Source of the DNA: Ruania alba | Lineage (GTDB): Bacteria > Actinomycetota > Actinomycetes > Actinomycetales > Beutenbergiaceae | Direction of reading: 5' to 3' | Length of the DNA: 64,000 bases | NCBI RefSeq assembly: GCF_900105765.1 | Contig: NZ_FNTX01000002.1 | Span: 558,001 to 622,000 of the forward strand | Shown: positions 13,069 to 27,684 of the stretch, in pieces | Layout: each line of letters begins with the position of its first letter | Numbering within the stretch: the stretch's first letter is position 1 | Program-made: the position numbers and the translations under genes | The notes under the pieces: generated by a model | Told to the model about the DNA's origin: nothing | What the model saw: only the letters and a program-made list of their open reading frames with translations | Databases searched by the model: none

Positions 13069-13130
13069 CGCCGAACGCAACCTTGTGCGGCGAAAGATGC
13101 GGGTGGGCCCGCACAGGGTTGCGCTCGGCG
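13069..13130. repeat. 62-bp hairpin element, copy 1 (imperfect)
   Basis: Left arm 13069-13092 starts CGCCGAACGCAACCTTGTGC; the right arm ends at 13130 with GGTTGCGCTCGGCG. The loop is 14 nt. The left arm is identical to copy 2 at 14069, and the right arm differs at a few positions, leaving a slightly broken stem. It sits in the 250-bp gap between the TauE and MerR genes. Related copies are at 14069-14130 and 27623-27684. Confidence 0.9.
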
Positions 13131-13177
13131 CGGTGGGTGGGTGGCCGAGGGTGGCATGCGCTGAATCGGGAGAAGGC

Positions 13178-13208
13178 TTGACTTTGACGTGACGTCAACG
13201 TTCAGAGT
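13178..13208 (+). promoter_or_regulatory. MerR-type promoter with 19-bp spacer and inverted-repeat operator
   Basis: A -35 box TTGACT (13178-13183) and a weak -10 CAGAGT (13203-13208) are separated by 19 bp, the over-long spacing typical of promoters activated by MerR proteins. The spacer holds the inverted repeat TTGACG-TGA-CGTCAA (13184-13198). It precedes the MerR/TipAS gene by about 30 bp, so autoregulation is the simplest reading. Confidence 0.65.
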
Positions 13209-13236
13209 GAGTCATGTTCGGAAACGGAGGGCCGTC

Positions 13237-14019
13237 ATGACGGAGATCGACGAGTGGTCGATGCACGAGATCACCCGCAGTACCGGCACGACCAGCCGCA
13301 CGCTGCGTCACTACGACCAGATCGGCTTGCTCCCGCCGACGAGGATCGGTGCCAATGGGTACCGGTACTACGACACCGACGCGCTGGTGCGGCTGCAGCG
13401 CATTCTGCTGCTGCGCGAGCTCGGGCTCTCCCTGGCCTCCATCGCCGAGGTGCTGGCGGGTGGCCAGAGCGAGGCCGAAGCCTTGCGTACCCACCTGGAG
13501 CTTCTCGAGATCGAGCGCAGCCAGGTGGAGCGCAGGATCGCTTCGGTGCGCACCACATTGGCCAAGAGAGAAGGAGGTGAACATCTCATGGCATCCGAGA
13601 TGTTCGATGGTTTCGACCACACCCAGTACAAGGACGAAGTCACGGAGCGATGGGGACGCGAGGCTTGGCAGCAGGGCGACGCCTGGTGGCGCTCCCTCTC
13701 CGCCGAGGAGAAGGCCCGGTTCCAGGCGGAGCAGCAGCAGATCGCCGCGGACTTCATCGCCGCGCACGAGGCCGGGCTCGACCCGACGGGTGAGCAGGTC
13801 CGGGCGATCGCCGAGCGGCACCACCGCTGGCTGTCCCACCCGATGATGTCCGTCACGAAGGGCTACTACCTGGGCCTGGCCGACATGTATGTGGTCGACC
13901 CACGGTTCGGGAAGAACTACGAGCGTGACGGCGGCGCTGCAGCCGGTGATCGGAGCGGAGCCGAGTACGTGCGTGAGGCGATGCGTGCCTACGCCGACAC
14001 CGCCGCGTTCGATGCGTAG
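13237..14019 (+). CDS. MerR-family regulator with TipAS antibiotic-recognition domain
   Basis: A 260-residue protein. Residues ~1-75 are a MerR winged-helix (SMHEITRSTGTTSRTLRHYDQIGLLPPTR... RYYDTDALVRLQRILLLRELG), followed by a coiled-coil dimerisation helix. Residues ~115-260 match the TipAS domain (MFDGFDHTQYKDEVTERWG... RHHRWLSHPMMSVTKGYYLGLADMYVVDPRFGKNYE), which binds thiopeptides and other cyclic peptides in TipA homologues. The ATG at 13237 has the GGAGGG ribosome-binding site; an upstream ATG at 13189 lies inside the promoter. Hairpin elements flank it on both sides. No obvious target gene is adjacent. Confidence 0.92.
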   Translation: MTEIDEWSMHEITRSTGTTSRTLRHYDQIGLLPPTRIGANGYRYYDTDALVRLQRILLLRELGLSLASIAEVLAGGQSEAEALRTHLELLEIERSQVERRIASVRTTLAKREGGEHLMASEMFDGFDHTQYKDEVTERWGREAWQQGDAWWRSLSAEEKARFQAEQQQIAADFIAAHEAGLDPTGEQVRAIAERHHRWLSHPMMSVTKGYYLGLADMYVVDPRFGKNYERDGGAAAGDRSGAEYVREAMRAYADTAAFDA

Positions 14020-14068
14020 CACCCCTGCCGGCTCACCGCCCAGCCCACCGAACCAGCCCCACCCCATT

Positions 14069-14130
14069 CGCCGAACGCAACCTTGTGCGGCGAAAATCGC
14101 GGCAGACGCCGCACAAGGTTGCGTTCGGCG
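14069..14130. repeat. 62-bp hairpin element, copy 2 (perfect 24-bp arms)
   Basis: Arms 14069-14092 and 14107-14130 are exact reverse complements over 24 bp (outer ends CGCCGAACGC and GCGTTCGGCG), with a 14-nt loop. It lies 50 bp past the MerR/TipAS stop. It could act as a strong terminator, but there is no U-run, and the same sequence recurs elsewhere in the window, so it is better treated as a dispersed repeat. Confidence 0.95.
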
Positions 14131-14224
14131 GGTGGGTGGGCGGCCCCGCGGGGAGGTGGCCCCGCGGGGAGGTGACCCGGCGGTGGGTGGGCGTGGACGG
14201 CCCGGCGGGTGAGGGTGAGTTCGG

Positions 14225-15127
14225 TCAGCCCTTCACCGAGCCGGAGGTGAGCCCCCGGACGAAGAAGCGCTGCAGGCCGAAGAACACCAGGATCGGTAGC
14301 GCCATCGACAGGAAGGCACCGGCCGAGAGGAGTTCCTTACCCTGGCCCTGCGTACCGAGCAGCTGTTGCAGCTGCACGATCATCGTCGCGTTCGACGGCG
14401 CCAGGAACAGCTTCGCGATGAGCAAGTCGTTCCACACCCACAGGAACTGCAGGGTGGCGAACGCCGCGATGGCCGGCATCGCCATCGGCGCCACCAGCAA
14501 CCAGAACGTCTGGTAGTGGCTGGCGCCATCGATCTTCGCCGACTCCACCACCGAGTAGGGCAGCGTGGACATGTAGTTGCGCAGCGTGTAGACGCACAGC
14601 GGCATGCCGAACCCGGTGTGCAGCAACCAGACGGCCACGAACTCACCGGAGATCCCGATGCCGTTCGGGCCGAGCAGATCGAGCATGGGCTGGAAGGCCA
14701 CCTGAATCGGCACCACCATGACCCCGACGATGATCACGAACAGGGTCTCCTTGAACCGGAAGTTCAGGAAGGTGAACGCATACGCGGCAAAGGCGGCGAA
14801 CATGATCGGCAGGATGGTGGCCGGCACCGCAGCCACCACCGAGTTCATGAAGCCGACGCCCATCTGGGCAGGTCCGGTGAACACCCCGATGTAGTTGTCA
14901 CCGGTCCACCCTTGGCCGAACGGGTCGGCGAACACGGTCCACCACCCGCTGGTGATGATGTCGTCCCGGCTACGCAGGGAGTTGATCACCAGGCCCAGAG
15001 TGGGGATCGACCAGAGAATCACCAGGACGACCATCACGATGATCGAGGTCCAGCTCCGCGGCCGGCCGTCCTTCATCATCGAGGGCTGACGCTTCTGCTT
15101 GGGCGCTGCCTGGGTGCTGGTGCTCAT
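14225..15127 (-). CDS. Carbohydrate ABC transporter permease (MalG-type)
   Basis: A 300-residue inner-membrane permease with six expected helices. The EAA loop that docks the ATPase appears as YSVVESAKIDGASHYQTFWLLVAPMAMPAI. It is the MalG-like subunit of a sugar importer with the 375-residue permease and the binding protein upstream. The ATG at 15127 overlaps the preceding permease stop by 4 bp, so the three genes form one operon. No ATPase gene is nearby; Actinobacteria often use a shared MsiK-type ATPase. Confidence 0.92.
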   Translation of the reverse strand: MSTSTQAAPKQKRQPSMMKDGRPRSWTSIIVMVVLVILWSIPTLGLVINSLRSRDDIITSGWWTVFADPFGQGWTGDNYIGVFTGPAQMGVGFMNSVVAAVPATILPIMFAAFAAYAFTFLNFRFKETLFVIIVGVMVVPIQVAFQPMLDLLGPNGIGISGEFVAVWLLHTGFGMPLCVYTLRNYMSTLPYSVVESAKIDGASHYQTFWLLVAPMAMPAIAAFATLQFLWVWNDLLIAKLFLAPSNATMIVQLQQLLGTQGQGKELLSAGAFLSMALPILVFFGLQRFFVRGLTSGSVKG

Positions 15128-16251
15128 CGGGCCGCCTCCTTCCGGTAGTGCCGGACCTGGTAGATCAGGATCGGGGTGACGAGGATCAGCAGCACCACCA
15201 CGATCGCCGAGGCGTTCCCGGCCCGCTGGAACGTGAACAGCTCCTGGAAGAACAGGTTGGCGATCACGTTCGAACTCGCCTGCCCGTTCAGGAGCACATA
15301 GATGATGTCGAACACCTTGAGCACCAGGATCGTCACGGTGATGAAGACGGTGATCATCGTGCCCTTGATCTGCGGGATGATCACCTGGAAGAAAACCTGA
15401 ACCTCGTTCGCTCCGTCGATCCGGGCCGCTTCCAGGGTCTCCTCCGGCACGGCCTTGATCCCGCCGGAAAGCAGGATCATGGCGAAGCCGGCCTGCATCC
15501 AGATCAGGATCACCATCATCAGGAACGAGTTCAGCCGGAGCGTGTCGAGGCGGAGCCAGTTCTGCGCCTCCCCACCCAGCCCGGTGACGATCGCATTCAA
15601 CAATCCGATCTCCGAATCGGCGTCGTAGATCTGGATCGCCCAGATCGTCGAGGCCGCCACGAACGAGATCGCCATCGGTAGGAAGATGAAGGCCTTGGCC
15701 ACCTTCTCGCCCTGGGCGGAGAGCCGGTCCGCGAACAGTGCTACGACCAGGCCGACCACCACGGTGAGCGCCGGGACCACGATCAGCCACAGCGCGTTGT
15801 TGGTGATCGAGAGCCAGAACTCGCTGCTGCCGAAGATCGCCACGTAGTTGTCGAACCCGACGTATGCGGTGCTGTCCTGATTGGCGAAGCTGTAGTTGAT
15901 CGTCTGCAGGGTCGGGTACACGAGCACCAGACCCAGCAGGGCGAAGGACGGAAGCACAAAAATGTAGGGGATCACGCCCTCGGAGAGCCGTTGTGGCATC
16001 CCTTCGATGAAGACGTTCACGCAGTAGAACAGCAACGCCGCGCCGCCGACACCGGCAATCATGCCGACGACGGCCATCAACAGCCGGTTGTCGAAGAACC
16101 ACTCGGGGTAGTACGCGAGCGCCAGGAAGACGTTCCCGGCCGCCCATGCCACCACGATGGCTCCGACGAGTCCGACGACGAGGCGCAGCGGGCGTGCGCC
16201 GCCGACTTTCTTCGGAGGCGACTCGGCGGCCGTCGCAGTGGCGGCGGTCAC
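15124..16251 (-). CDS. Carbohydrate ABC transporter permease (MalF-type)
   Basis: A 375-residue permease. An extended N-terminal region with two or three helices precedes the transport core. The core contains FVLPSFALLGLVLVYPTLQTI and the EAA loop EETLEAARIDGANEVQVFFQVIIPQIKGT. It pairs with the MalG-type permease to form the translocation pore. It starts with GTG at 16251, overlapping the binding-protein stop (16248) by 4 bp. The layout binding protein-MalF-MalG resembles alpha-glucoside (Agl-like) importers, but the sugar is not determined. Confidence 0.92.
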   Translation of the reverse strand: MTAATATAAESPPKKVGGARPLRLVVGLVGAIVVAWAAGNVFLALAYYPEWFFDNRLLMAVVGMIAGVGGAALLFYCVNVFIEGMPQRLSEGVIPYIFVLPSFALLGLVLVYPTLQTINYSFANQDSTAYVGFDNYVAIFGSSEFWLSITNNALWLIVVPALTVVVGLVVALFADRLSAQGEKVAKAFIFLPMAISFVAASTIWAIQIYDADSEIGLLNAIVTGLGGEAQNWLRLDTLRLNSFLMMVILIWMQAGFAMILLSGGIKAVPEETLEAARIDGANEVQVFFQVIIPQIKGTMITVFITVTILVLKVFDIIYVLLNGQASSNVIANLFFQELFTFQRAGNASAIVVVLLILVTPILIYQVRHYRKEAAR

Positions 16252-17606
16252 GAGTCCTCCTCCCCGTCAGCCGGCCAGCTGGCCTCGATGTCGGCGGTGA
16301 CCTCCTCGGCCGGCTTGCCGTTCAACCAGTCGACCATGCCGGTCCAGAACGTCCCACCACCGACGGCGTTCGGCATCAGGTCGCTGCCGTCGAACCGGAA
16401 GACGTCCGCGTCCGCCACGATCTCCGCCGTGCGCCGGGTGAGCTCATCCGGGTACTGGCTCGCGTCGAAGGTGGCGTGCGGCGAGAGCCACCCGCCGGCC
16501 TGCGCCCACGGACCGCCGAACTCGGGTGAGGTGAGGAACCGCATCACCTCGATCGAGTCCGGGTCGTTGCCGTTCATCAGCGCAGCCAGGTCGCCGCCAC
16601 CGAGGATCGGCTGGTCGGTGTAGTCACCGGAGCCTGCCCGCGGGAAGACGAACAGCCCGACTTCGTTGTCCAGGTTCTCCTGGACGTCCGACGGCATGAA
16701 GCCGGTGATGAAGTTGCCCTGCCGTTCCATCAGGCACTCCGGCGGGTCCTCGAAGGCCGGCAGGATGGCCTCGCTGAACGGGGTGGCGATCACGTTCGAG
16801 GTGCCACCGAGCACGTTGCCCTCGGCGAACACCAGCTCGCCGTAGGCGTCGAACGCCTCCACCACGCGCGGGTCGTCGAACGGAATCTCGTGCGACGTCC
16901 ACTCGTCGTACACCTCGGGGCCGTGCAGCCGGAGCATGTACTCCTCGATCCAGTCCGTACCCACCCAGCCGGTGGCCTGGTCGGAGTTCCATCCCATGCA
17001 CCACGGGGCCATGCCGTCGGCGCTGATCTCCTCCTGGATCGCGGCCAGGTCCTCCAGCGTGTCCGGTTCGGTGTTGTACCCACCGTCGGCATACGCCTCC
17101 TGCGGGTACCAGACCAGCGACTTCACCGCCATCCGCATCGGCGCGCCGTAGGGCAGCCCGTTGGACGCCTCGGACGCGTCCAGGAAGCCGGGCACCAATG
17201 ACTCCTCCAGCGCGGGCACGTCCAAGTAGAAGTGGATCGGCTCGACGTTCCCGGCATCGGCCTGCTCGATCAGGCCACCGGGTTGCGGAAAGATTGCAAT
17301 GTCCGGTGCCTGACCGGACCCGGCCCGAGCCCGGACCGTGTTGGTGAAGTCCTGGTCCGAGCTGTACTGCACGTCGATCCCGGTGTCCTCCTCGAACTGC
17401 ACCAGCGATTCGTTGAACGCTTCGGCTTCCGCTCCGCCGAAGGCGCCGAGGATCGTCACCACTCCATCGCCGTCGGTCTGAGCGTTGTCCGCGCCGGATC
17501 CACGGTCGCTCCCGCTCCCCGGTGATTGCAAACATCCGGCCAGGAGTAAAGCCCCCGTCGCGGCCACACTGGTGACCGCCAGCTTCTGGCGCACAGACTT
17601 CGTCAT
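16248..17606 (-). CDS. Sugar ABC transporter substrate-binding lipoprotein
   Basis: A 452-residue secreted lipoprotein: a positively charged start, a hydrophobic helix and lipobox LLAGC with Cys25. The mature part has the solute-binding family 1 pattern (VVTILGAFGGAEAEAFNESL... GIDVQYSSDQDFTNTVRARAGSGQAPDIAIFPQPG). Later aromatic residues in the domain would line a sugar pocket. Overall it looks closest to alpha-glucoside binding proteins (AglE-like), which is inference from its general pattern. A strong AAGGAG ribosome-binding site precedes the ATG at 17606. It is the first gene of the three-gene operon. Confidence 0.9.
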   Translation of the reverse strand: MTKSVRQKLAVTSVAATGALLLAGCLQSPGSGSDRGSGADNAQTDGDGVVTILGAFGGAEAEAFNESLVQFEEDTGIDVQYSSDQDFTNTVRARAGSGQAPDIAIFPQPGGLIEQADAGNVEPIHFYLDVPALEESLVPGFLDASEASNGLPYGAPMRMAVKSLVWYPQEAYADGGYNTEPDTLEDLAAIQEEISADGMAPWCMGWNSDQATGWVGTDWIEEYMLRLHGPEVYDEWTSHEIPFDDPRVVEAFDAYGELVFAEGNVLGGTSNVIATPFSEAILPAFEDPPECLMERQGNFITGFMPSDVQENLDNEVGLFVFPRAGSGDYTDQPILGGGDLAALMNGNDPDSIEVMRFLTSPEFGGPWAQAGGWLSPHATFDASQYPDELTRRTAEIVADADVFRFDGSDLMPNAVGGGTFWTGMVDWLNGKPAEEVTADIEASWPADGEEDS

Positions 17607-17677
17607 CTGTCGACTCCTTCGTCCGATTGCGCAGGCTAGGACAACCTGCTGCCCTGCACGGTAGCCCGGCAGGCAGT

Positions 17678-17694
17678 TTTTGGCAGCGCCAAAA
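17678..17694. promoter_or_regulatory. Candidate operator upstream of the sugar ABC operon
   Basis: The inverted repeat TTTTGGC-AGC-GCCAAAA (7-bp arms, 3-nt centre) lies about 75 bp upstream of the binding-protein ATG. Sugar importers are commonly controlled by LacI- or ROK-type repressors binding such palindromes. No regulator gene is adjacent, so the factor is unknown. Confidence 0.4.
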
Positions 17695-17776
17695 GTTCCC
17701 CGATCCGGGCCGTTGCCGAATCGAGATCTCAGGTGCCGCGATGTGCGCGTTCACACCGGGTACGCCCACACACACA

Positions 17777-17823
17777 AGGCCACGCCCGACGGCGGAGGTG
17801 AGCTCCGCCGTCGGGCGTGGCCT
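17777..17823 (-). terminator. Strong hairpin terminator downstream of lpd
   Basis: Perfect 20-bp inverted repeat: 17777-17796 (AGGCCACGCCCGACGGCGGA) pairs with 17804-17823, with a 7-nt loop. It lies just past the lpd stop (17841) on the minus strand and would separate lpd from the divergently placed ABC-operon promoter region. No U-run follows, which is common for GC-rich actinobacterial terminators. Confidence 0.75.
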
Positions 17824-17840
17824 GAGTGCGTGGCTGGGTG

Positions 17841-19238
17841 CTACAGGTTCAGCATGTGCCCGGAGATCCCGTGCACGGCCTCCTTGACGGCCTCACCCAG
17901 GGTCGGGTGCGCGAACACGTTCCGGGAGACCTCGTCCGCGGTGAGGTCCCACCGCTGCGCGAGGTTGAGCACCGGGAGCAACTCGGTCACGTCCGGGCCG
18001 ATCAGGTGGGCGCCGATGATCTCGTTGTATTGCGCGTCGGCCACCACCTTGACGAAACCGACCGGCTCGCCCAGGCCCATCGCCTTGCCGTTCGCGGTGA
18101 ACGGGAACTTCGCGACCTTGACGTCGTAGCCCTTCTCCTTCGCCTGCTCCTCGGTGTAGCCGAAGGAGGCGATCTGCGGCTGGCAGTAGGTGGCGCGCGG
18201 GATGAAGTCGAACTCGATCTCCTGCGTCTCAGCGCCGCCGATGGTCTCGGCGGCCACCACGCCCATCGCCTCGGCCGTGTGCGCGAGCATCAGCTTGCCG
18301 GTGACATCTCCGATGGCGTAGACGTTCTCCACGTTCGTGCGCCCGCGCGCATCCACCACGATGGCGCCGCGCTCGGTGGCCACGCCGATGTTCTCCAGGC
18401 CGTAGCCCTCCAGGCGCGGCGCGAACCCGATCGCGGAGAGCAGCCGGTCGGCCTCGAGCACCTGTTGGTCGCCCCCCTTGGCCGGGCTCACGGTCACCTT
18501 CACGCCGGAACCGGTGTCCTCCACGGCCTCGACCTTGGTGGAGGTCATCACCGTCACACCAAGTTTCTTGTAGTGCTTGGCGAGCTCCTTGGAGATCTCC
18601 GGGTCCTCGGTGGGCACCATCCGGTCGAGGAATTCCACGATGGTGACGTCCACGCCGAAGTTCTTCAGCACGTACGCGAACTCCACGCCGATGGCGCCGG
18701 AGCCGGCGACGATCACCGATCCGGGCAGCTCGTCGTCGAGGATCTGTTCCTCGTAGGTCACCACGTTCTTGCTCAGCTCCACCCCGGGCAGCTTCTTCGT
18801 GGTGGCACCGGTGGCGATGATCAGGTGGCCGAAGGTGAGTTCGGTGGTGGAGCCGTCGTCGGCGGCCACCGACATGGAGGTGGGCGAGGTGATCGTGCCC
18901 CAGCCGTCCACCTCGGTGATCTTGTTCTTCTTCATCAGGAAGTGCACGCCCTTGACGATGCCGGCCGAGACCTGCCGGCTGCGGGCATGCGTGGGCCCGT
19001 AGGACATCGAGGCATCGCCGGTGATGCCGTACTTGTCCTTCTCGTGGTTCAGCGTGTGCGCGAGTTCAGCGTTCCGCAGCAGTGCCTTGGAGGGGATACA
19101 GCCCACGTTCAAGCAGACACCACCCCAGTACTGCTTCTCCACGACGGCGACATTCAGCCCCTGCTGAGCTGCGCGAATCGCGGCGATGTACCCACCGGGG
19201 CCTGCTCCGAGAACAACGAGGTCATAGTGTGAAGTCAC
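17841..19238 (-). CDS. lpd: Dihydrolipoyl dehydrogenase (E3)
   Basis: A 465-residue flavoprotein disulfide reductase. The FAD-binding GAGPGG is at residues 11-16 and the redox-active pair is C42/C47 in [13 protein letters not shown]. The NAD-binding [10 protein letters not shown] follows, then the second FAD motif YAIGDVTGK and a C-terminal His-Glu-containing interface ([16 protein letters not shown] region). It reoxidises lipoamide in pyruvate, 2-oxoglutarate and branched-chain dehydrogenase complexes. It is monocistronic here, ending in the strong hairpin. The length matches the family. Confidence 0.96.
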
Positions 19239-19363
19239 AGCACCGACTGTACTGGCGCGACAGGGCCCGTGCGCCCGCAGACGCCGAAAAGTATCGGGCC
19301 GTGAACCATCTCACTCTGTTGCCGGGTGGGCGCGGAGCCGTACACCCGCTACGGTGGCCTGCG

Positions 19364-19897
19364 ATGTCTGGCAAACCGGCGCCCTGCGTGCGCCTGCGTC
19401 CGTTGATCGATGCCGATGTGGCGGTGCTCTCCTCCTGGGCCCTCGACACGCGGTTCCGTGAGTTGGCCGAGTGGTCTCCCGACTGGTCGGTGGCCGAGTA
19501 CCGCGCGTTCTGGCGTGACCTGATCGCCGACCCGCCGCAGGACCTGCTCCGCCTCGGGGTGGAGCACGAGGGCGAGCTGTGCGGGTATGTGGACCTGCAC
19601 GGTCACGGGGACACTCGCGAGCTCGGCTTCCTGGTGGGCCCGCAGGACCGATGGGGACGCGGGCTCGGGGCAGCCGCCGCAGCAGCAGGCCTGGCGCACG
19701 GCTTCGACGTGCTCGGCCTGCACCGGGTGTGGGCGGAGGCGTACGACACCAACGCGGCCTCGGTCCGTATCCTGGCCCGCATCGGGATGGTCGAGACCGG
19801 CTCCGGGGCGAGCGGCGCGTTCGACGGGCAGCCAGCCACGTACCGGCAGTTCGCACTCCGGCGCGAGCACTGGCACCCGCTGGCCGCCTCCGCCTGA
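19364..19897 (+). CDS. GNAT-family N-acetyltransferase
   Basis: A 177-residue RimJ/RimL-type acetyltransferase, with VRLRPLIDADVAVLSSWALD at the start, the acetyl-CoA loop DRWGRGLGAAAAAAGLAHG, and LHRVWAEAYDTNAASVRILARIGMVETG. The ATG at 19364 is the first in-frame start that begins the conserved fold; the longer upstream frame overlaps the lpd gene antisense. The substrate is unknown. Confidence 0.85.
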   Translation: MSGKPAPCVRLRPLIDADVAVLSSWALDTRFRELAEWSPDWSVAEYRAFWRDLIADPPQDLLRLGVEHEGELCGYVDLHGHGDTRELGFLVGPQDRWGRGLGAAAAAAGLAHGFDVLGLHRVWAEAYDTNAASVRILARIGMVETGSGASGAFDGQPATYRQFALRREHWHPLAASA

Positions 19898-20696: not shown

Positions 20697-20714
20697 CCTC
20701 ACCATCGGCGCGGG

Positions 20715-21347
20715 TCAGCGCTGCCGGAACGCCACCTGGTGGGCAGCCACCACCAGCCAGAGCAGGCAGGCGACCCACGCGAGCGCCGTGACCGCCGCGA
20801 GCTCACGGACCCCGATCGTGAGCAGGCACGCCACCGCGAACCATCCCGCGATCGCTCCGAGCACTCGCACCGCAGGGCTCCACGCATAGGAACGGGCGAG
20901 CAGGGCCAGGTACAGGCCGAGGGTGGCCACGTGCAGAACCCCACCGGCAAGCGCCGTGAGCGTGTACACCCCCTGCACGCCTGCGGGTGCGAGCACCGAG
21001 CCGAGCACCGCCAGCACCAACGCGCCCACGCCCGCCACGCCGAGCATGACGACGGCCCCCCAGTGAGCAATCCGGGTGCGGGCCGGCAGGGGCATGGCCA
21101 TCGCGAAGGCCACACCGAGCACGGCGAGCGCCGCCGCTGCCACCAGGGCGGCGGCCCCGGAGACCAGGACCTGCACCGGGTGCGCAGCGAAGTACTCGGC
21201 CACACCGGGGCTCCCCGGAACCGGGACCGGGCTACCCGCCAGACCGCTGCGCGCGATCGCCCCCGCAGCAGTGGCCACAACGAACACAGCCACAGATCCC
21301 GCCGCGGCGCCGCCGACGGGCCTCGGTGCCTCGCGAGGCCGCTCCAT
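20715..21347 (-). CDS. Hypothetical multi-pass membrane protein
   Basis: 210 residues, mostly hydrophobic, with about six predicted helices. Among them are VAVFVVATAAGAIARSG, VSGAAALVAAAALAVLGVA, GAVVMLGVAGVGALVLAVLG and LLWLVVAAHQVAF. It resembles small uncharacterised actinobacterial membrane proteins, but I cannot place it in a named family. It follows the GNAT gene convergently and is separated from the HepT gene by 50 bp. Confidence 0.6.
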   Translation of the reverse strand: MERPREAPRPVGGAAAGSVAVFVVATAAGAIARSGLAGSPVPVPGSPGVAEYFAAHPVQVLVSGAAALVAAAALAVLGVAFAMAMPLPARTRIAHWGAVVMLGVAGVGALVLAVLGSVLAPAGVQGVYTLTALAGGVLHVATLGLYLALLARSYAWSPAVRVLGAIAGWFAVACLLTIGVRELAAVTALAWVACLLWLVVAAHQVAFRQR

Positions 21348-21397
21348 CCCCCAACCCTAGGGCGGGACCATGGTCAACGGGCGGTCGAGGAGTGCGA

Positions 21398-21814
21398 TCA
21401 GTCCTCGGCGATGAAACCGGCCACCTGTGCCACGAACGCGGTAGGAGGCTCCAGCGAGGACAACCGCCGGATCACGATCTCGTCGTCGACATCGGCGTAC
21501 TCGTACACAAGGATGTTCCGGAATCCGACGGACTGCCGGACCGACACTGCCAACTCGGCATCGAGCACCCCGTGCGTCGCCAGGAGCCGAACCGCGTCAC
21601 CATTGTCCGCCGGAGGCCCCCACCCAGAGACGGCACAGAGGTGCTGCGCCACATCCATGCAGGACTCGATGGCGGTGACGAAGGAGTACTTCACACCGCG
21701 CAGCCACATCACATCCTGACGGCGCGCATCGTCAGCGAGCGCCTCCCACTCCAGGACCGTGACCTCGTCGCTGATCCGGCGCAACAAGCGCTGTACACGC
21801 ACCTGATCAGCCAT
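21398..21814 (-). CDS. hepT: HepT-like HEPN toxin with altered catalytic motif
   Basis: A 138-residue all-alpha HEPN protein (DUF86/HepT family). Its start overlaps the MntA-like gene by 8 bp, matching the two-gene MntA/HepT toxin-antitoxin layout. The family RNase motif RX4HXY reads R99-N-I-L-V-Y104-E-Y106, with Tyr in place of the catalytic His (codon TAC at 21505-21503). The second Tyr, which is adenylylated by MntA in the characterised pair, is kept. Loss of His would be expected to reduce or abolish RNase activity. The rest of the fold, including WLRGVKYSFVTAIESCMDVAQHL, is intact. Confidence 0.85.
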   Translation of the reverse strand: MADQVRVQRLLRRISDEVTVLEWEALADDARRQDVMWLRGVKYSFVTAIESCMDVAQHLCAVSGWGPPADNGDAVRLLATHGVLDAELAVSVRQSVGFRNILVYEYADVDDEIVIRRLSSLEPPTAFVAQVAGFIAED

Positions 21815-22199
21815 GGCGCACGCTCGCGATGAACTCGCGATGGGCTCGTTCAAACCGCGGGCGCTCGTCGAAGTAGATCTTCCGCGTCATGGCTTCCCAC
21901 CGGACCCGCAGGTCCGGATCTACCTCGAACAGCAGCACCCCGGTTGCGGCAACTCTGCCGGCAAGCTCGAGCGGTGCCGAGTCCAGCACCAGCAGGTCCG
22001 CACCAGCAGGGAGCAGCAGATCCGAGCCGAGCACATCACGACGGCCGAAGTATGCGGCCACATCCACGTCCGAGTCCGCCCGCGCACGATCGGTGGCATG
22101 GCTGCCATGGAGATAGCCGAACTGCGCCCCGGCAGCACGCAGCGCCTCGACCGAGATATCGAGGAGCTGGGTCACCGCCGGGTCCATAACGGTCATCAT
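21807..22199 (-). CDS. mntA: MntA-like nucleotidyltransferase antitoxin
   Basis: A 130-residue minimal nucleotidyltransferase. The GSX10DXD motif is complete as G32-S33 to D44-V-D46 in GSHATDRARADSDVDVAAYF, so AMP transfer chemistry looks possible. In the characterised system MntA adds AMP units to a tyrosine of HepT and thereby blocks it. It is the first gene of the pair, with an 8-bp overlap into hepT. No RNA antitoxin or extra gene is seen. Confidence 0.9.
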   Translation of the reverse strand: MMTVMDPAVTQLLDISVEALRAAGAQFGYLHGSHATDRARADSDVDVAAYFGRRDVLGSDLLLPAGADLLVLDSAPLELAGRVAATGVLLFEVDPDLRVRWEAMTRKIYFDERPRFERAHREFIASVRHG

Positions 22200-22241
22200 C
22201 GCACCCGCCTATGACGTCGGCCAGGTCGTCACCTGCCCGCG

Positions 22242-23291
22242 TCAGACCACGTGCCCGGCCAGCAGCTCGGCCGTCCGGTCGGCGTCCGTCTCGACATTGT
22301 GGACGTGGAACGAGAATCGCACCTTCCCCGCTCGGGCCGCGGTGATGACTCCCGCGTCCGCGAGCGCCGCCACGCCTGCCTCGTCCACGCCCAACGAGAC
22401 GATCGCCGAATCGGTGGGCGCCACGCCCAGCGCCGAGGTGAACCTCCGGGCGAGGCCCACCGCGTGCTGGTGCAACGCCGTCGGGCCGATCTCGGTGAGC
22501 AGCTGCAGCGAGGGTTCGGCTCCTACCCAGGCCGGCCACGCCGGGGACACGTCGAACCTGCGGGCGCCCGCCGCCAGGCGCAGCGGCCCGCCGTAGATGG
22601 CCGACCAGCGGTCCTCACCCGCGTACCAGCCGGCCTGCCCCGGCACGACGGCGTCCGTCAGATCCCCTCGGACGCTCAGGTAGCCGGTGCCCCGGGGAGC
22701 CAGCAGCCACTTGTATCCGCCGGAGACGGTGAACGCCACACCGTCGAGGTCCACCGGCAGCCACCCAGCAGACTGGGTGAGGTCGAGCAGGATCTCGGCG
22801 CTGCGCGCCCGACACGCGGCACGTAGCGCGGGCAGGTCAACGAGAGCACCGTCGGCGGACTGCACGGCGGCCACGGCGACGAGCGCCGTGTCGGGACCGA
22901 CCGCCGTCGGGAGTTCGGCCAGAGGCACCTCCCGCACCCGCACGCCGCGATGGGACTGGGCGAGGAACGGGAACGAGACAGAGGTGAACTCGCCGGCGGC
23001 CACCAGCACTTCGGCGCCGTCGGGCACCCAGTCCGCCACCGGTGCCACCATCGCCGAGACCTGACTGCCCACGGCGATCGTGGCCGGATCGAGCCCCACC
23101 AGTGCGGCGTACAGCTCGCGGCACCGATCCACCACCTCGTCGAACTCGGGCGCCTGGACGCGACCGGCGCTCCACCGGTCCAGGTGCGTGCGCAGGGCCG
23201 CCACGGTGCGCTGTGGCGGGAGCCCTGCGGAGGCGGTGTTCAGGTAGAGGTTCTCCGGCGCGAACTGATGCGCCCACGGCCAGTCGCTCAT
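22242..23291 (-). CDS. Aminotransferase class-V-fold PLP-dependent enzyme
   Basis: A 349-residue PLP enzyme of the class V (NifS/isopenicillin-N-epimerase-like) fold. The Schiff-base lysine lies in FTVSGGYKWLLAPRGTGYL, preceded by the cofactor aspartate in EILLDLTQSAGWLPVD. The C-terminal domain ends in VRFSFHVHNVETDADRTAELL. Specific desulfurase or racemase features such as an active Cys loop are not seen. The ATG at 23291 is 42 bp from a divergent small membrane protein gene. The substrate is unknown. Confidence 0.88.
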   Translation of the reverse strand: MSDWPWAHQFAPENLYLNTASAGLPPQRTVAALRTHLDRWSAGRVQAPEFDEVVDRCRELYAALVGLDPATIAVGSQVSAMVAPVADWVPDGAEVLVAAGEFTSVSFPFLAQSHRGVRVREVPLAELPTAVGPDTALVAVAAVQSADGALVDLPALRAACRARSAEILLDLTQSAGWLPVDLDGVAFTVSGGYKWLLAPRGTGYLSVRGDLTDAVVPGQAGWYAGEDRWSAIYGGPLRLAAGARRFDVSPAWPAWVGAEPSLQLLTEIGPTALHQHAVGLARRFTSALGVAPTDSAIVSLGVDEAGVAALADAGVITAARAGKVRFSFHVHNVETDADRTAELLAGHVV

Positions 23292-23326
23292 GCCGGTGAT
23301 CGTACGGCTCTTGATAGCGTCCCCGC

Positions 23327-23533
23327 ATGGGCGGCAGCGAGCAGGACGAACAGGAACCTGTGGACCCGAAGGGTGACCCGAACCAGTGGCTGGGCGTGGG
23401 TCTCGCCCTCGGCATCGGTGTCGGCGCTGCGCTCGGGGTCGCGATGGACAACCTTCCCGTGGGGATCGCTATCGGCGTGGCCCTCGGATTGGTGGCGGGC
23501 CTGGTCCTGGGCAAGATCAAGGACGGGCGCTGA
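23327..23533 (+). CDS. Small Gly-rich membrane protein
   Basis: 68 residues: an acidic-polar N-terminus (MGGSEQDEQEPVDPKGDPNQ) followed by two glycine-zipper-like hydrophobic segments (WLGVGLALGIGVGAALGVAM and IAIGVALGLVAGLVLGKI) and a short basic tail. It matches the look of small conserved actinobacterial membrane proteins without known function. It reads divergently from the PLP enzyme gene and converges on the response-regulator gene. Confidence 0.7.
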   Translation: MGGSEQDEQEPVDPKGDPNQWLGVGLALGIGVGAALGVAMDNLPVGIAIGVALGLVAGLVLGKIKDGR

Positions 23534-23539
23534 CGCTTC

Positions 23540-24211
23540 TCACTGCTCCCCCGGGCGCACCAGGTGCGTCTCGTAGGCGAGCACCACGAGCTGGGATCGG
23601 TCGCGGGCGTCGAGCTTGGCGAGTAGCCGGCTGACGTAGGTGCGCGCGGTGGCCGGACTGACGAACAGTGCGGTGGCGATCTCGTCGTTCGACTGCCCGC
23701 GCCCCACGCAGGCCAGCACCTCGCGTTCCCGGTCAGTGAGGCCGGCGAGCCGGGCGAGCGTCGTCTCGTCGGGGTTGGCGGCTCGGTGCTCGCTGACCGC
23801 CTGCACCAGCGCACGTAGGGCTGCCGAACCCAGTGCCCGCTCCCCCGCTGCCACGGTCCGGATCGCCTCGCGCAGCTCCTCGGGCGCGACATCTTTGAGC
23901 AGGTACCCGCTGGCCCCGGCGCGGACCGCGGCGAGGATCTCGGCGTCCTCGTCGAAGGTGGTCAGCACCAGCACCCGCACCTGGTCCAGCTCCGGGTCCG
24001 CGCAGATCGCCTGAGTGGCCTCGATGCCGTCCATCTCGGGCATCCGCAGGTCCATCAACACCACGTCCGGACGGGTGCGGCGCACCTCGGCCACCCCGGC
24101 CCGCCCGGTGCCGGCCTCGGCGACCACCTCGATGTCGCCGTCGTGGGTGGCCAGGGTGCGCAGACCGGTGCGCACCAGGGTGGAGTCGTCCACGAGCGCC
24201 AGGGAGATCAT
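23540..24211 (-). CDS. NarL/FixJ-family response regulator
   Basis: A 223-residue regulator: a receiver domain with the acidic pair D8/D9 and phospho-acceptor D54 (VVLMDLRMPEMDG), then a LuxR-type helix-turn-helix (LTDREREVLACVGRGQSNDEIATALFVSPATARTYVSRLLAKLDARDRSQLVVLAYE). It is translationally coupled to the upstream histidine kinase (ATGA overlap at 24208-24211), forming a cognate pair. The target is unknown, but the multicopper oxidase and small membrane protein genes are divergently adjacent. Confidence 0.95.
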   Translation of the reverse strand: MISLALVDDSTLVRTGLRTLATHDGDIEVVAEAGTGRAGVAEVRRTRPDVVLMDLRMPEMDGIEATQAICADPELDQVRVLVLTTFDEDAEILAAVRAGASGYLLKDVAPEELREAIRTVAAGERALGSAALRALVQAVSEHRAANPDETTLARLAGLTDREREVLACVGRGQSNDEIATALFVSPATARTYVSRLLAKLDARDRSQLVVLAYETHLVRPGEQ

Positions 24212-25431
24212 GGCTGCAGCCTGCCAGGCAACTCGGCCTTAACGGCAAAACCCTGGTCCCCGGTGCGCCCTGCCATGAGGGTGCCGCCGAGCAGCGTGGC
24301 CCTTTCGCGCATGCCGGTGATTCCCGACGGCGGAGCGTGCGTTCGCGAGTCGCCGGCACCGTCGGTGGTGGTCGCCTGAGGTGCGCCATCGCTGCCCTGT
24401 GCTGCGGGGGCCCCGCGGCCGTCGTCCCGGATCTCCAGCACCAGGCTGGCGCCCTCGAGTGCGGCAGTAACCGTGACGTGAGTGGCGCCGGAGTGCCGGA
24501 TCACGTTCGTGAGGGACTCCTGCACGATGCGGAAGGCGGCCGCGTCGATCGGTCCGGACAGTGCCCCCTCGGGGACCTGCACGTCCGCGTCCACCTGCAG
24601 TCCGGCACCCCGGGCGGCCTCCAGGAGCGGGGCGATACCCGCGAGACCAGGCGCTGTGATCGGCTCGCTGGAGTCCGGGGCGGTGCGCAGCAGCCGCACG
24701 GTGGCGCGCAGCTCACGCAACGTCTGGCCTGCGGACTCACGGATCTGCGCCAGGGCGCGTTCCGCCGTCGGGCGATCACGGCCGAGCGCCTCTGCGGCGA
24801 CACCGGCATTCATCGACACCACGGAAAGGCTGTGCCCGATCGAATCATGCAGGTCGCGGGCGATCTGCACGCGCTCGTCCTGCAGGCGGGCAGCGGCACG
24901 GCGTTCCTGCTCGGCCGTGGTCAGCTCGAGGATGCGGGCCTGCTGCGCACGGGCCTGCCGGCGGGTGCGCACACTCACCCCGAGCGCGATCGCGGCGGCG
25001 AGCAGGGCGACGTTGGTGAACATCTCGTAGGAGATGAGATACGCCGTCGGGAGGCCCTCGTCGATCCGGAAGAACGCCGCCACCGCCACCAGCACAGCGC
25101 CGGCGATGATCGCCGTCCGGGTGCGGCCCTGTTCGGCGGCAGAGTACGTCGCGGCCACGGCCGGCCAGGCGATCCCGATCGGCGGGAAGCCGAGCGCGTA
25201 GTAGGTGAAGATCCCCAGCACGGTCAGCGTGAGGACCACGCGCGGCACGCGCCGGCGCCACACCATCAGAGCGCCGAACGCGACGGCGAACAGGTAGGCG
25301 GCAGGCGGCCCGCCCGGATCGCTGTCGGCCTCGGCGGCGATCACCAGGGCCACCCCGAGGGCCACCCCGATGCCGAGCAGCGCGTCGAGCACGCGGGGGC
25401 TCACACCGAAGGGGTGCGGAGTGTCGGTCAC
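24208..25431 (-). CDS. Sensor histidine kinase (HisKA_3 family)
   Basis: A 407-residue kinase. Four or more hydrophobic segments occupy the first ~155 residues. The phosphorylated His195 lies in QIARDLHDSIGHSLSVV, typical of the NarL-partner class, and the ATPase domain has VQESLTNVIRHSGATHVTV, LEIRDDGRG and SGITGMRERATLLGG. The GTG at 25431 (MTDTPHPFG) is preferred because it begins the membrane region. The longer upstream frame has no matching ribosome-binding site. The signal sensed is unknown. The next gene upstream is divergent. Confidence 0.9.
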   Translation of the reverse strand: MTDTPHPFGVSPRVLDALLGIGVALGVALVIAAEADSDPGGPPAAYLFAVAFGALMVWRRRVPRVVLTLTVLGIFTYYALGFPPIGIAWPAVAATYSAAEQGRTRTAIIAGAVLVAVAAFFRIDEGLPTAYLISYEMFTNVALLAAAIALGVSVRTRRQARAQQARILELTTAEQERRAAARLQDERVQIARDLHDSIGHSLSVVSMNAGVAAEALGRDRPTAERALAQIRESAGQTLRELRATVRLLRTAPDSSEPITAPGLAGIAPLLEAARGAGLQVDADVQVPEGALSGPIDAAAFRIVQESLTNVIRHSGATHVTVTAALEGASLVLEIRDDGRGAPAAQGSDGAPQATTTDGAGDSRTHAPPSGITGMRERATLLGGTLMAGRTGDQGFAVKAELPGRLQP

Positions 25432-25670
25432 CGCTCCAGCGTATGAAGTGCCACCGACGGCGCACATCCACCGCAGGGGGTACGTCCCCTGAGTGCGGTG
25501 TCGCCTGCAAGCGACACCTCCTGTCCGCACGGGGCGAGTGCACGAGACCACAGGGGGTGGATGTGGCGAGGACGCGTGATTCCTAGCGTCGTAGCCATGA
25601 CGAATCACCCCCAGACGTACCCCGCTCGCCCCGGTCCATCCGGACCCCGTCCCCCATCGCATGGCCGCTG

Positions 25671-26057
25671 GTGTTCGGTCTCGCCGCCCTGACGTTGCTG
25701 TGGCCATTGACGAGCGTGACCGGCCTCGCCGATGCGATCGGCAACCCGGCCCGCGCGCTGCTTCTGATCACACTCATCGGTGGCGCCTGGATCGGTGTGG
25801 TCGGGCTGGGCCGGGTAGCCCGGCCGATCGCCACCCTGACCCTGACCGGACTGGCGGCCGGGGTGATCACCCTGGTGGCGTCCGTGGTGGTGACCGGGCT
25901 CGGCGCCGAGAGCGGGGGCCTGAGTGGGGCGCCGGCATTCGCGCTGCCGTTGGTGGCCGTGGAGATGGTCGGGAGCCAGACGCTGCTCGGAGCCCTCGCG
26001 GGGCTGGTGGCGGCCGGCGTGCAGCGTGCCCGCGGCGTGGCCGGAGGCACCCGATGA
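25671..26057 (+). CDS. Small membrane protein upstream of the multicopper oxidase (possibly frameshifted)
   Basis: From GTG at 25671 the frame encodes 128 residues with about four hydrophobic segments (FGLAALTLLWPLTSVTGLAD, LLLITLIGGAWIGVVG, LTLTGLAAGVITLVASVV, LVAVEMVGSQTLLGALAGLV). No ribosome-binding site precedes that GTG. A better ATG at 25597 opens MTNHPQTYPARPGPSG in another frame. One extra C in the run at 25651-25655 would join it to IAWPLVFG and give a complete protein of ~150 residues. Its stop overlaps the next gene's ATG (ATGA), implying an operon. Function unknown. Confidence 0.6.
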   Translation: MFGLAALTLLWPLTSVTGLADAIGNPARALLLITLIGGAWIGVVGLGRVARPIATLTLTGLAAGVITLVASVVVTGLGAESGGLSGAPAFALPLVAVEMVGSQTLLGALAGLVAAGVQRARGVAGGTR

Positions 26058-27556
26058 CCGGGCTCTCCCGCCGCGCGTTCCTCGCGGTGACCGGCGCGGG
26101 TGCCGCGGCGATCACCCTCGCCGGGTGCAATACGGCAAGCACGAGTGCGGTGAGTGAACCCGAGCGGTTCGACGCGGCGCTACCCATCCCGCCGCTGGCC
26201 GAGTCGGAGCTCGTCGACGGGATACGGGTGCTCCGGATCACCGCACAGGCGGGCACCCACCAGTTCCGCGCCGGCGAGGACGTGTCCACCTGGGGCTTCG
26301 ACGGACCGTACGGTGGCCCGACCGTGCGGGCGACGGTGGGCGAGCGGGTGGCTGTCGAGGTGACGAACGAGCTGGACGAGTCGACCAGCGCGCACTGGCA
26401 CGGGATGCACCTGCCGCCGGACATGGACGGCGGACCGCACCAGATGATCGAGCCCGGTGACACCTGGCGGGCCGAATGGCTCCTCGACCAGGCGCCCTGC
26501 ACGCTCTGGTACCACCCGCACCCGCACGGGGCCACGGAACGGCACGTCTACCGCGGGCTGGCCGGACTGTTCTACCTGGACCCGGCGCCCGGGTCTGCGG
26601 AGGCGGCAGTCGAGGAGCAGCTGCCGCACACCTACGGGGTGGACGACGTCCCGGTGGTGATCGGTGACAAGAGCTTCTCCGACGGCGGGGAGCTGGTGAT
26701 CGACGACGGCGGCAACGAGGTCGGGCTGCTAGGGGACGTCGTCACCGTGAACGGGGTAGTGGGTCCAGTGCTGCAGGTCAGTACCGAGCGGGTGCGACTG
26801 CGGTTGCTGAATGCCTCCACCGCCCGCACCTACTCGCTCGGGCTGCCCGGCCGTACGGTCACCCTGGTGGCCACCGATGGCGGCCTGTTGCGCCAGCCGG
26901 TGGAGCTGGAGCAGGTGCGCCTCTCCCCCGGCGAGCGAGCCGAGGTGGTGCTGGCGATGGAGCCTGGCGAGGAGGTGATGCTGCACTCCTTCGAACCGGA
27001 GCTGGGCAACGTGGTGGTGCCCTTCGCCGTCGGCGCGAACGACGCCTTCGACGTGCTGCGGATCGTGGCGGAAGGGGAGCTGTCGGCCTCGCCGGAGGTA
27101 CCCGGTGAGCTGGCCACGTTCGGACTGGATGCCGCGAGCGCAACGGTGCGGCGGGAGTTCCGGCTCTCAGACCGGGAGATCAACGGCGCAGAGATGGACA
27201 TGGCGCGCATCGACGAGACCGTCGAGGTGGGCACCACCGAGATCTGGACCGTGATCAACGACGACCTGTCGCCGCACAACTTCCACGTGCACGACGTGCA
27301 GTTCGAGGTACTCAGCGTCGGCGGGTCGGAGCCGCCGCCGGAGCTGGGAGGTCGCAAGGACACCGTGTACCTGGAGCCCGGGCGTGCGGTGGAGCTGATC
27401 ATGACCTTCGAGGACTACGCGGACCCGCAGTGGCCATACATGTACCACTGCCACCTGCTCCGGCACGAGGACGAGGGGCTGATGGGCCAGTTCGTCGTGG
27501 TGGAGCCAGGTGAGTCGGCGGACCCGTCGATGATCGCGGGGCACGGGCTCCACTGA
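26054..27556 (+). CDS. Tat-exported multicopper oxidase lipoprotein
   Basis: A 500-residue oxidase. A Tat-type signal (LSRRAFLAVTGAGAAAIT) leads into lipobox LAGC with Cys25, so it is likely folded in the cytoplasm and anchored outside as a lipoprotein. Copper ligands are HWHG (114-117), HPHPHG (154-159), HNFHVHD and HCHLLRHEDEGLM (His465, Cys466, His467, His471, Met477). These supply the type 1 and trinuclear sites of a laccase/bilirubin-oxidase-type enzyme. Substrates may be phenols, Cu(I) or metal ions; no Met-rich copper-binding insert is seen. The ATG overlaps the previous membrane-protein stop by 4 bp. The NarL-type two-component system is divergently adjacent and may regulate it, which is inference. 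Confidence 0.93.
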   Translation: MTGLSRRAFLAVTGAGAAAITLAGCNTASTSAVSEPERFDAALPIPPLAESELVDGIRVLRITAQAGTHQFRAGEDVSTWGFDGPYGGPTVRATVGERVAVEVTNELDESTSAHWHGMHLPPDMDGGPHQMIEPGDTWRAEWLLDQAPCTLWYHPHPHGATERHVYRGLAGLFYLDPAPGSAEAAVEEQLPHTYGVDDVPVVIGDKSFSDGGELVIDDGGNEVGLLGDVVTVNGVVGPVLQVSTERVRLRLLNASTARTYSLGLPGRTVTLVATDGGLLRQPVELEQVRLSPGERAEVVLAMEPGEEVMLHSFEPELGNVVVPFAVGANDAFDVLRIVAEGELSASPEVPGELATFGLDAASATVRREFRLSDREINGAEMDMARIDETVEVGTTEIWTVINDDLSPHNFHVHDVQFEVLSVGGSEPPPELGGRKDTVYLEPGRAVELIMTFEDYADPQWPYMYHCHLLRHEDEGLMGQFVVVEPGESADPSMIAGHGLH

Positions 27557-27622
27557 CCCCCACCACTAACCTCCACCCCGGCCGACCACTCCCCACCCCG
27601 CCGCAACGCCAGGCCCCCACCC

Positions 27623-27684
27623 CGCCGAACGCAACTCTGTGCGGCGTTTTCCGCGGAGAACGCCGCACAGGGTTGCGTTCGGCG
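27623..27684. repeat. 62-bp hairpin element, copy 3
   Basis: Arms 27623-27646 and 27661-27684 pair over 24 bp with one G-T wobble; the loop is 14 nt. Outer ends are again CGCCGAACGC and GCGTTCGGCG. It lies in the 144-bp gap between the multicopper oxidase and the FAD monooxygenase gene, 17 bp before the latter's ATG. Confidence 0.93.

What the first reader, a model, noticed from the sequence alone, without database searches (positions are those of the whole stretch)
13069..27684. Three copies of a 62-bp hairpin repeat with constant architecture
Copies at 13069-13130, 14069-14130 and 27623-27684 each have 24-bp arms and a 14-nt loop. Copy 2 has perfectly complementary arms; copy 3 has a single G-T wobble; copy 1 has drifted in the right arm. 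The outer arms (CGCCGAACGC...GCGTTCGGCG) are conserved while the loops differ in sequence, so selection or mobility appears to act on the stem. All copies are intergenic. This is the pattern of REP-like or miniature inverted-repeat elements, possibly moved by a transposase elsewhere in the genome.
Basis: seen in the sequence. Interest (0 to 1): 0.75.

Follow-up and report, generated by a model that had tools for sequence, protein, structure and literature searches.

The report
Swappable palindromes at shared genome sites
Bacteria of the genus Ruania carry dozens of 62-letter DNA palindromes, mostly just after genes; sister species often keep a palindrome at the same place but with different letters on both arms, and a few sit in frame inside protein genes, so this looks like an old family of small repeats that are copied and replaced by an unknown agent.

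Summary
The three hairpins are real and far beyond chance. They belong to a family of at least 57 palindromes (about 62 bp) in this Ruania genome. Relatives occur in all 8 Ruania genomes held and in some other lineages. Two stem blocks, CGARCGC and TKCGGC, are nearly constant; the seven pairs between them vary and covary.

Many sites are old: 14 of 15 palindromes examined in Ruania G002 lie where this genome also has one. Of 31 occupied gaps of this genome mapped in G002, 15 hold a family-A palindrome, 2 a second family (B), 14 none detected. Mid-stem letters are species-typical. Palindromes also sit in frame in genes: a binding protein's signal peptide (4 of 8 species), and a 159-bp insertion found only in this genome among four compared.

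No Y1/RAYT transposase was found in 8 of 8 Ruania genomes, U-runs are absent, and the exact half-arm never occurs alone.

Best explanation: REP-like palindromic repeats, largely inherited, copied and replaced as precise units, mostly at gene 3' ends. The copying agent is unknown.

The parts
13069..13130 (.). Family-A palindrome copy 1 (62 bp), between divergent genes: TauE/SafE-type exporter (12177-12986 -) and MerR/TipAS regulator (13237-14019 +); right arm drifted
14069..14130 (.). Family-A palindrome copy 2 (62 bp, perfect arms), between convergent genes: MerR/TipAS regulator and ABC-transporter permease (14225-15127 -)
27623..27684 (.). Family-A palindrome copy 3 (62 bp, 29-bp stem), 66 nt after a multicopper oxidase gene and 16 nt before an FAD-binding monooxygenase-like gene; G002 has a palindrome with TGGGTTG/TGACTTC mid-stems after the orthologous oxidase gene. 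Its loop, read in reverse complement, is the same as that of the copy at G000 C1:268398
14072..14078 (+). Example of the nearly invariant outer block CGAACGC (repeated inverted at the other end)
   Evidence: columns 4-10
14079..14085 (+). Example of the covarying, species-typical mid-stem block (AACCTTG here)
14086..14091 (+). Example of the nearly invariant inner block TGCGGC (TTCGGC in the G006 copies seen; TTCGGC or CTCGGC in G004 copies)

Best explanation
This is a family of about 62-bp palindromic interspersed repeats, REP-like in anatomy and old in Ruania. Shown: the palindrome is the repeated unit; many sites are shared between species; both arms mostly change together; each species has typical mid-stem letters; at least one copy is present in this genome and absent at the alignable site in two sister species; palindromes of different type occupy the same place in sister species. 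Inferred: palindromes are copied element-for-element to other sites, including sites that already hold one. This could be template switching or conversion of hairpin-forming single strands seeded by the constant blocks, or the work of an unidentified enzyme that recognises those blocks. Selection then leaves most copies just downstream of genes, where the stem probably serves as a transcript 3' end (terminator or stabilising hairpin).
For: Number and unit: 57 places; all 47 exact half-arm matches in the genome lie inside those places, 0 for the reversed control; two copies 1.1 kb apart in G006 match at 58 of 61 positions while their flanks look unrelated; window copy 3 and C1:268398 share the loop in opposite orientation. 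Structure: 15 of 24 pairs change on both sides, covariation score 0.408 versus 0.135 shuffled (58 sequences); in 21 hits found with the mid-stem left free, 121 of 147 mid-stem positions pair, versus 44.6% when arms of different copies are combined. Shared sites: 14 of 15 G002 palindromes examined; C2:137269 shared by four species. Species-typical letters. Gain: 159-bp in-frame insertion in G000, absent in G002 and G004. In-frame copy in a TPP-riboswitch-preceded binding protein in 4 of 8 species with differing letters. Family A versus B at the same place in three cases. Position: 21 convergent, 29 tandem, 4 divergent, 3 in genes. An unrelated hairpin stands in its place at C2:129048 in G004 and G006 and at C2:2112041 in G004.
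Against: No copying enzyme identified. No clean target-site duplication: the one alignable empty site has C-rich and G-rich flanks that blur the junction. Of 31 A-occupied G000 gaps mapped in G002, 14 hold no detected palindrome, so gain and loss are frequent. Arms are not always paired: 325 of 399 mid-stem positions in the 57 G000 copies. Loops at orthologous sites are slightly more alike than at non-orthologous ones (0.487 vs 0.432, permutation p = 0.029, 17 pairs), which fits change in place better than wholesale replacement at some sites. The in-gene A/B case lies in a variable linker where two independent insertions are possible.
Confidence: 0.58

Rival explanations
1. Plain transcription terminators: hairpins that arose at gene ends and are kept by selection, with no copying between sites.
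For: Location mostly just downstream of genes; unrelated hairpins at some orthologous gaps; compensatory changes.
Against: The same two blocks at 57 places do not follow from selection for any hairpin; 5 or more T in 8 nt after 1 of 114 hairpin sides, control 5 of 456; in-frame copies in coding sequence; copies alike over the unit but with unrelated flanks.
Confidence: 0.15
2. Sites recognised by a sequence-specific DNA- or RNA-binding protein that changes specificity between species and so drives all sites to a new mid-stem.
For: Species-typical mid-stem with constant flanking blocks.
Against: Within G000 positions 14 and 15 of the stem vary among copies; G002 holds several types at once; the coding copy in the binding-protein gene differs between species too. 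No candidate protein was looked for.
Confidence: 0.12
3. RAYT/TnpA-REP-mobilised REP or REPIN elements.
For: Dispersed palindromes mostly at gene ends, with species-typical families; REPs are so described in the listing and abstract starts seen.
Against: PF01797 not found in 8 of 8 Ruania genomes, although the search rings in 5 of 14 control genomes; of 24 family genomes only G008, another genus, has it, 2 matches. A lost transposase or another HUH family was not tested.
Confidence: 0.08
4. Paired DNA-uptake sequences (DUS/USS dyads) at gene ends with species dialects.
For: Dialect-like species differences at shared sites.
Against: The exact half-arm never occurs alone: 47 of 47 matches are inside palindromes. 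That uptake sequences number in the thousands is recalled, not looked up.
Confidence: 0.01

Closest known systems
REP / REPIN elements with RAYT (TnpA-REP)
   Same: Short palindromes, many dispersed copies, mostly extragenic, species-typical families (listing and abstract starts)
   Different: About 62 bp versus the 20-40 bp in the abstract start of PMC3733652; no Y1 transposase found in the genus; some copies in frame in genes; no GTAG/CGTC tag seen by eye in the consensus, not tested further
Rickettsia palindromic elements (RPE)
   Same: Palindromes inserted in frame in protein genes (passages of PMC10969869)
   Different: 62 bp versus about 150 bp in those passages; unrelated actinobacterium; mostly intergenic; many orthologous copies stay paired with new letters, whereas RPEs are reported to lose repeat identity over time (passage of PMC6649704). 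No sequence comparison was made
Coding palindromes in Nematomorpha mitochondria (PMC6649704)
   Same: Palindromes inside coding genes, gained and lost between species; template switching proposed for arm homogenisation (passages)
   Different: Mitochondrial inverted repeats within genes, not a dispersed repeat family with constant blocks and near-constant length
SPRITE repeats of Streptococcus pneumoniae
   Same: Dispersed terminator-like repeat enriched at gene 3' ends (passages of PMC3049150)
   Different: SPRITE is AT-rich with a U-rich tract; these are GC-rich without one
Stem-loop sequence families of the 2008 survey (PMC2267715)
   Same: Repeat families defined by a shared stem-loop (passages)
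   Different: The table passage seen lists Corynebacterium and Mycobacterium as the high-GC Gram-positives; I did not search that paper for Ruania or compare sequences

Membership tests
REP/REPIN with RAYT | Dispersed short palindromes, mainly extragenic, tens to hundreds of copies | tested here: met
   At least 57 places, 54 outside called genes
REP/REPIN with RAYT | RAYT / Y1 transposase in the genome or genus | tested here: not met
   PF01797 in 0 of 8 Ruania genomes; control rings in 5 of 14 genomes
REP/REPIN with RAYT | GTAG or CGTC tag at the palindrome foot | tested here: inconclusive
   Not seen by eye in alignments A1 and A2; no dedicated test was run
MITE | Terminal inverted repeats matching a transposon in the same genome | not tested
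   Only Y1_Tnp was searched
MITE | Target-site duplication | tested here: inconclusive
   One alignable empty site (G002 and G004 versus G000 C2:1001077): by eye an imperfect repeat of TACCGACCCGGACG on both sides, blurred by C/G-rich flanks
Rickettsia palindromic element-like | In-frame copies in protein-coding genes | tested here: met
   Three genes in G000: binding-protein signal-peptide region, oxidoreductase C-terminus, variable linker of a protein without Pfam match
Rickettsia palindromic element-like | Sequence homology to RPE | not tested
   No RPE sequence was fetched or compared
Intrinsic (Rho-independent) terminator | Stem followed by a U-run | tested here: not met
   5 or more T in 8 nt after 1 of 114 hairpin sides; control 5 of 456 gene ends
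Intrinsic (Rho-independent) terminator | Transcript 3' ends at the stem | not testable with these tools
   Needs Term-seq or a reporter
DNA-uptake sequence dyad | Single copies of the arm also abundant | tested here: not met
   47 of 47 exact half-arm matches are inside palindromes
Known structured RNA (Rfam) | Match above gathering score | tested here: not met
   0 matches in the window

The most novel reading that the evidence does not exclude
Ruania chromosomes have long-lived 'palindrome sites' at which the palindrome itself is exchangeable. A resident 62-bp hairpin, even one translated inside a gene, is replaced by another hairpin of the species' current type or of family B, with both arms switching together and length kept. 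That would be block-guided hairpin exchange in bacteria without a RAYT, giving genome-wide concerted evolution of a repeat at fixed sites.
Probability: 0.3. Interest if true: 0.8.

Novelty: new variant of a known kind. Interest (0 to 1): 0.6.

Why it matters
REP-type palindromes are usually explained by a resident RAYT. Here is a genus with an old, still changing palindrome family, no Y1 transposase found, sites shared across species, in-frame coding copies, and letters that differ on both arms at once. It is a natural test of whether bacterial palindromes can spread and homogenise by replication or conversion alone, and of whether 3'-end hairpins are interchangeable parts. R. albidiflava DSM 18029 and R. 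rhizosphaerae LNNU 22110 are named strains (titles), so the test is practical.

Tried and rejected
Y1/RAYT mobilisation: searched, not found. Known RNA family: none in the window. DNA-uptake dyads: rejected for the exact half-arm. U-run terminators: rejected. Integron-like cassettes: considered because close pairs flank single genes (9 neighbouring pairs under 2.5 kb versus 1.6 expected). At two loci a gene block lies between two palindromes in G000 while others have one palindrome and no block: C2:961516-963849 against G002, G004 and G006, and C2:2184657-2185596 against G006, where G002 keeps the gene with one palindrome. But other pairs are shared between species with their gene, and in G002 no palindrome was detected at either window position of copies 1 and 2. 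Integrases and attC cores were not searched, so recombination between neighbouring palindromes is only suspected. Leading-strand bias of tandem sites (26:3 versus 52:32 in control gaps, p = 0.005) rests on an origin and terminus that I inferred from collinearity with G002 and on regions chosen for having palindromes; not used as evidence.

Literature, by listing titles and abstract starts, open-licence PMC only: 'repetitive extragenic palindromic' with Actinobacteria and hairpin, 0 papers; 'Ruania' with genome, 34 papers, 15 listed, none on repeats by title; some searches listed 3, 11, 2, 5, 7 and 1 papers, none naming this family in the titles and abstract starts shown.

Caveats on counts. 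One search scored 150 of 8610 candidates, so 57 is a lower bound. The 15 G002 palindromes come from truncated listings, found with models or patterns made from G000 copies but not chosen by site. Of the 14 at G000 sites, one (3217923) is degenerate, two gaps have extra genes in G002 (175223, 1466742), one has the gene block in G000 (961516), and one matches through the left neighbour only (window copy 3). The fifteenth (2351819) lay outside the G000 stretches fetched. The position-chosen G002 stretches were fetched mainly for G000 sites without a listed G002 partner, so they lean towards absence. G000 stretches were fetched because they hold palindromes, so 'G002 only' sites are under-seen. 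In one search, site 430521 counts as 'none' though a degenerate palindrome is visible, and 1566939 has a remnant half-arm. Gene calls are from my own codon-usage caller.

Full report
OBSERVATION. The 24-nt arm matches five times in the window with up to three mismatches, all in these copies, and never in 100 shuffles. DNA folding gives z-scores of -5.09, -10.14 and -10.02. Copy 3 is a 29-bp stem with a 4-nt loop, so its 14-nt loop is partly paired. A general model built later finds no fourth copy in the window, and Rfam has no match.

COPY NUMBER. The window lies in a 4.83-Mb genome in two contigs. An exact half-arm pattern has 47 matches (26 forward, 21 reverse) and none for the reversed control. 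A covariance model from 23 copies gives 114 hits, that is 57 places each seen on both strands; 150 of 8610 first-look candidates were scored, so this is a lower bound. All 47 half-arm matches lie inside those 57 places: the exact half-arm is never found alone.

HOST AND BREADTH. With the exact half-arm of this species, one of 58 other genomes has matches, G002. With the model, all 8 Ruania genomes have hits at E up to 1 (the listing was cut). A pattern that fixes the outer and inner blocks and leaves the seven middle positions free finds 21 stretches in the collection of 84,980 species: 9 in R. albidiflava, 5 in R. rhizosphaerae, 2 in Ca. R. gallistercoris, 4 in two Actinomycetales MAGs and 1 in a Streptomyces (records near the window's own genome may be left out there). 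A genus-wide model has hits at E up to 0.001 in 21 of 59 genomes: the 8 Ruania, 10 other members of the family, two genomes of a further family (G035, G052) and one other genome with two weak hits; 38 of 59 have none (stricter filters).

ANATOMY. Each arm is an outer block CGARCGC, seven middle positions and an inner block TKCGGC; the copies aligned in A2 are 60-62 nt long, with a variable, sometimes self-complementary loop. In 58 sequences from Ruania and two MAG lineages, 15 of 24 pairs change on both sides; the covariation score is 0.408 against 0.135 in shuffles and at most 0.092 with slid partners. Related sequences can exceed shuffles without structure, and many were found with a structure model, so I repeated the test on the 21 hits of the pattern that leaves the middle free: 121 of 147 middle positions pair within a copy, against 44.6% when arms of different copies are combined. 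In the 57 G000 copies 325 of 399 middle positions pair. Flanks are C-rich on the left (53% C) and G-rich on the right (52% G).

POSITION. With my own gene calls, the 57 places are 21 convergent, 29 tandem (26 plus strand, 3 minus), 4 divergent and 3 inside called genes. Neighbouring copies under 2.5 kb apart number 9 against 1.6 expected; none of 20,000 simulations reached 9. A T-rich stretch follows 1 of 114 hairpin sides, 5 of 456 control gene ends, so these are not classical intrinsic terminators.

SHARED SITES, DIFFERENT LETTERS. I fetched 35 stretches around G000 palindromes, 14 around 15 G002 palindromes, and others from G002, G004, G005 and G006. Of the 15 G002 palindromes, 14 lie in the gap orthologous to a G000 palindrome site, with the qualifications given under Tried and rejected; the fifteenth lies outside the G000 stretches fetched. 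Of 7 G006 palindromes in 6 stretches, 5 lie at G000 sites, one in a neighbouring gap, one outside the fetched G000 stretches. In a table of all mapped gaps of at least 60 nt, stretches chosen for G002 palindromes give 14 A-A, 2 B-B, 6 A-none, 46 none-none and no none-A. Stretches chosen by position give 1 A-A, 1 B-B, 2 A-B, 8 A-none and 42 none-none: occupied in G002 4 of 12 G000-occupied gaps against 0 of 42 G000-empty gaps, p = 0.0016. Together, of 31 A gaps of G000, 15 hold A, 2 hold B and 14 hold nothing detected in G002. At shared sites the middle block mostly differs. In G000 left arms it begins AAC in 48 of 57 copies. Over both arms in G002 (21 copies) it is AAA 20, TGA 7, TGG 7, others 8; in G006 (7 copies) TGA 14 of 14; in G005 (8 copies) TC-types 12 of 16. 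One pair keeps the G000 type in G002 (C2:1852687). C2:137269 holds a palindrome in G000, G002, G004 and G006 with different spellings. In G004, of 7 G000 sites whose gap could be mapped, 4 hold a family-A palindrome, 2 an unrelated hairpin and 1 has no gap; G006 has nearly the same unrelated hairpin at C2:129048. Window copy 3 has a G002 counterpart after the same oxidase gene, with TGGGTTG/TGACTTC mid-stems. For window copies 1 and 2 no palindrome was detected in G002, which instead has three extra genes at one position and one at the other.

INSIDE GENES. (1) C2:276418 lies in frame in the signal-peptide region of a solute-binding protein (SBP_bac_6) just after a TPP riboswitch (RF00059). 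The palindrome is present in G000, G002, G004 and G006 and absent in G001, G003, G005 and G007. Its spelling differs: AACCTGG with CAAAGTT in G000, TGGCTTC with CAACCCA in G002; in G004 and G006 the two arms have diverged from each other. (2) C2:1001077 is a 159-bp in-frame insertion near the C-terminus of a pyridine nucleotide-disulphide oxidoreductase in G000; G002, G004 and the more distant G001 lack it, and the other four Ruania gave no match for the protein at E up to 1e-60. This is the clearest gain, though loss in the others is not excluded. (3) C2:285003 is an in-frame copy in a variable linker; at the same place G002 has a family-B palindrome, also in frame.

FAMILY B. A second 62-nt family, about CGCGAGTGCGGNNNATCTCGCTCA...GAGATAT..., has 28 half-pattern matches in G000 and 15 in G002, and none in the other six Ruania genomes with that exact pattern. 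It is oriented and often has a further GAGTGCGG-like copy just downstream. Thirteen were found in the fetched G002 stretches. Five lie in mapped gaps: three opposite a B in G000 (C2:138161, 1329112, 2184005) and two opposite an A (C2:1730360, 1739076). One is the in-gene case; the other seven could not be mapped.

UNIT OF COPYING. In G006 two palindromes 1.1 kb apart match at 58 of 61 positions, the mismatches at one end, and their flanks look unrelated. In G000 the palindromes at C2:961516 and 963849 share a loop, flank three genes, and stand where G002, G004 and G006 have a single palindrome between the same neighbours. Window copy 3 and C1:268398 share their loop in opposite orientation. 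So the palindrome itself appears to be what is copied; whether gene blocks come or go by recombination between palindromes is not decided.

MECHANISM. Shown: a palindrome family with many shared sites, mostly paired change of both arms, species-typical mid-stems, one presence/absence difference at an alignable site, and different palindromes at the same place in sister species. Inferred: element-for-element copying or conversion, arm homogenisation (template switching is proposed for palindromes in a passage of PMC6649704), and a 3'-end role for most copies. Against wholesale replacement, loops at orthologous sites are slightly more alike than at non-orthologous sites (0.487 vs 0.432, permutation p = 0.029, 17 site pairs). 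The agent is unknown: Y1 transposases were not found in 8 of 8 Ruania genomes; other enzymes were not searched.

KNOWN RELATIVES. It works like REP elements (dispersed palindromes at gene ends) and like Rickettsia palindromic elements (in-frame copies in genes). I do not file it as REP/RAYT because the defining transposase was searched and not found, nor as RPE because no sequence relation was tested. Papers: PMC3733652 and the other REP papers were seen as listing and abstract starts, with an empty term search in PMC3733652; PMC10969869, PMC6649704, PMC3049150 and PMC2267715 as passages.

Noticed in passing
G000 C1:535113, C1:563298, C1:661048, C2:138161, C2:1329112, C2:2184005 and others; no exact-length copy seen in the window (one 3-mismatch half-pattern at 31129-31149): A second 62-nt palindrome family (B), often with a GAGATAT loop and a further GAGTGCGG-like copy downstream; exact half-pattern only in G000 and G002 among 8 Ruania.
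   Followed up: partly
L118 6139-6200 (G000 C2:276418), TPP riboswitch at L118 6250-6353: A palindrome translated in frame in the signal-peptide region of a riboswitch-preceded solute-binding protein in four of eight Ruania species.
   Followed up: yes
G000 C2:961516-963849 (L122): Three genes flanked by two palindromes with the same loop, where three sister species have one palindrome and not these genes.
   Followed up: partly
window 12987-14224: Copies 1 and 2 start exactly 1000 bp apart and flank the MerR/TipAS regulator gene; in G002 the same gene has extra genes on both sides and no palindrome was detected.
   Followed up: yes
upstream of G000 C2:399379 (L119) and C2:2119606 (L133): Partial extra copies of the outer arm just before the palindrome, as slippage or aborted copying might leave (seen).
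   Followed up: no
G000 tandem sites genome-wide: Tandem-gene palindromes follow leading-strand genes 26 to 3 against 52 to 32 in control gaps, with an inferred origin and terminus.
   Followed up: partly
window 17777-17823, 33909-33982, 51273-51319, 54565-54617: Other strong intergenic hairpins of unrelated sequence, perhaps ordinary gene-end hairpins.
   Followed up: no
L204, L205 (G008): Two Y1 transposase matches in a family member of another genus, the only ones among 24 family genomes.
   Followed up: no
L167 1297-1359 (Streptomyces sp. XM83C): A single palindrome with the same blocks in a Streptomyces; perhaps a one-off.
   Followed up: no
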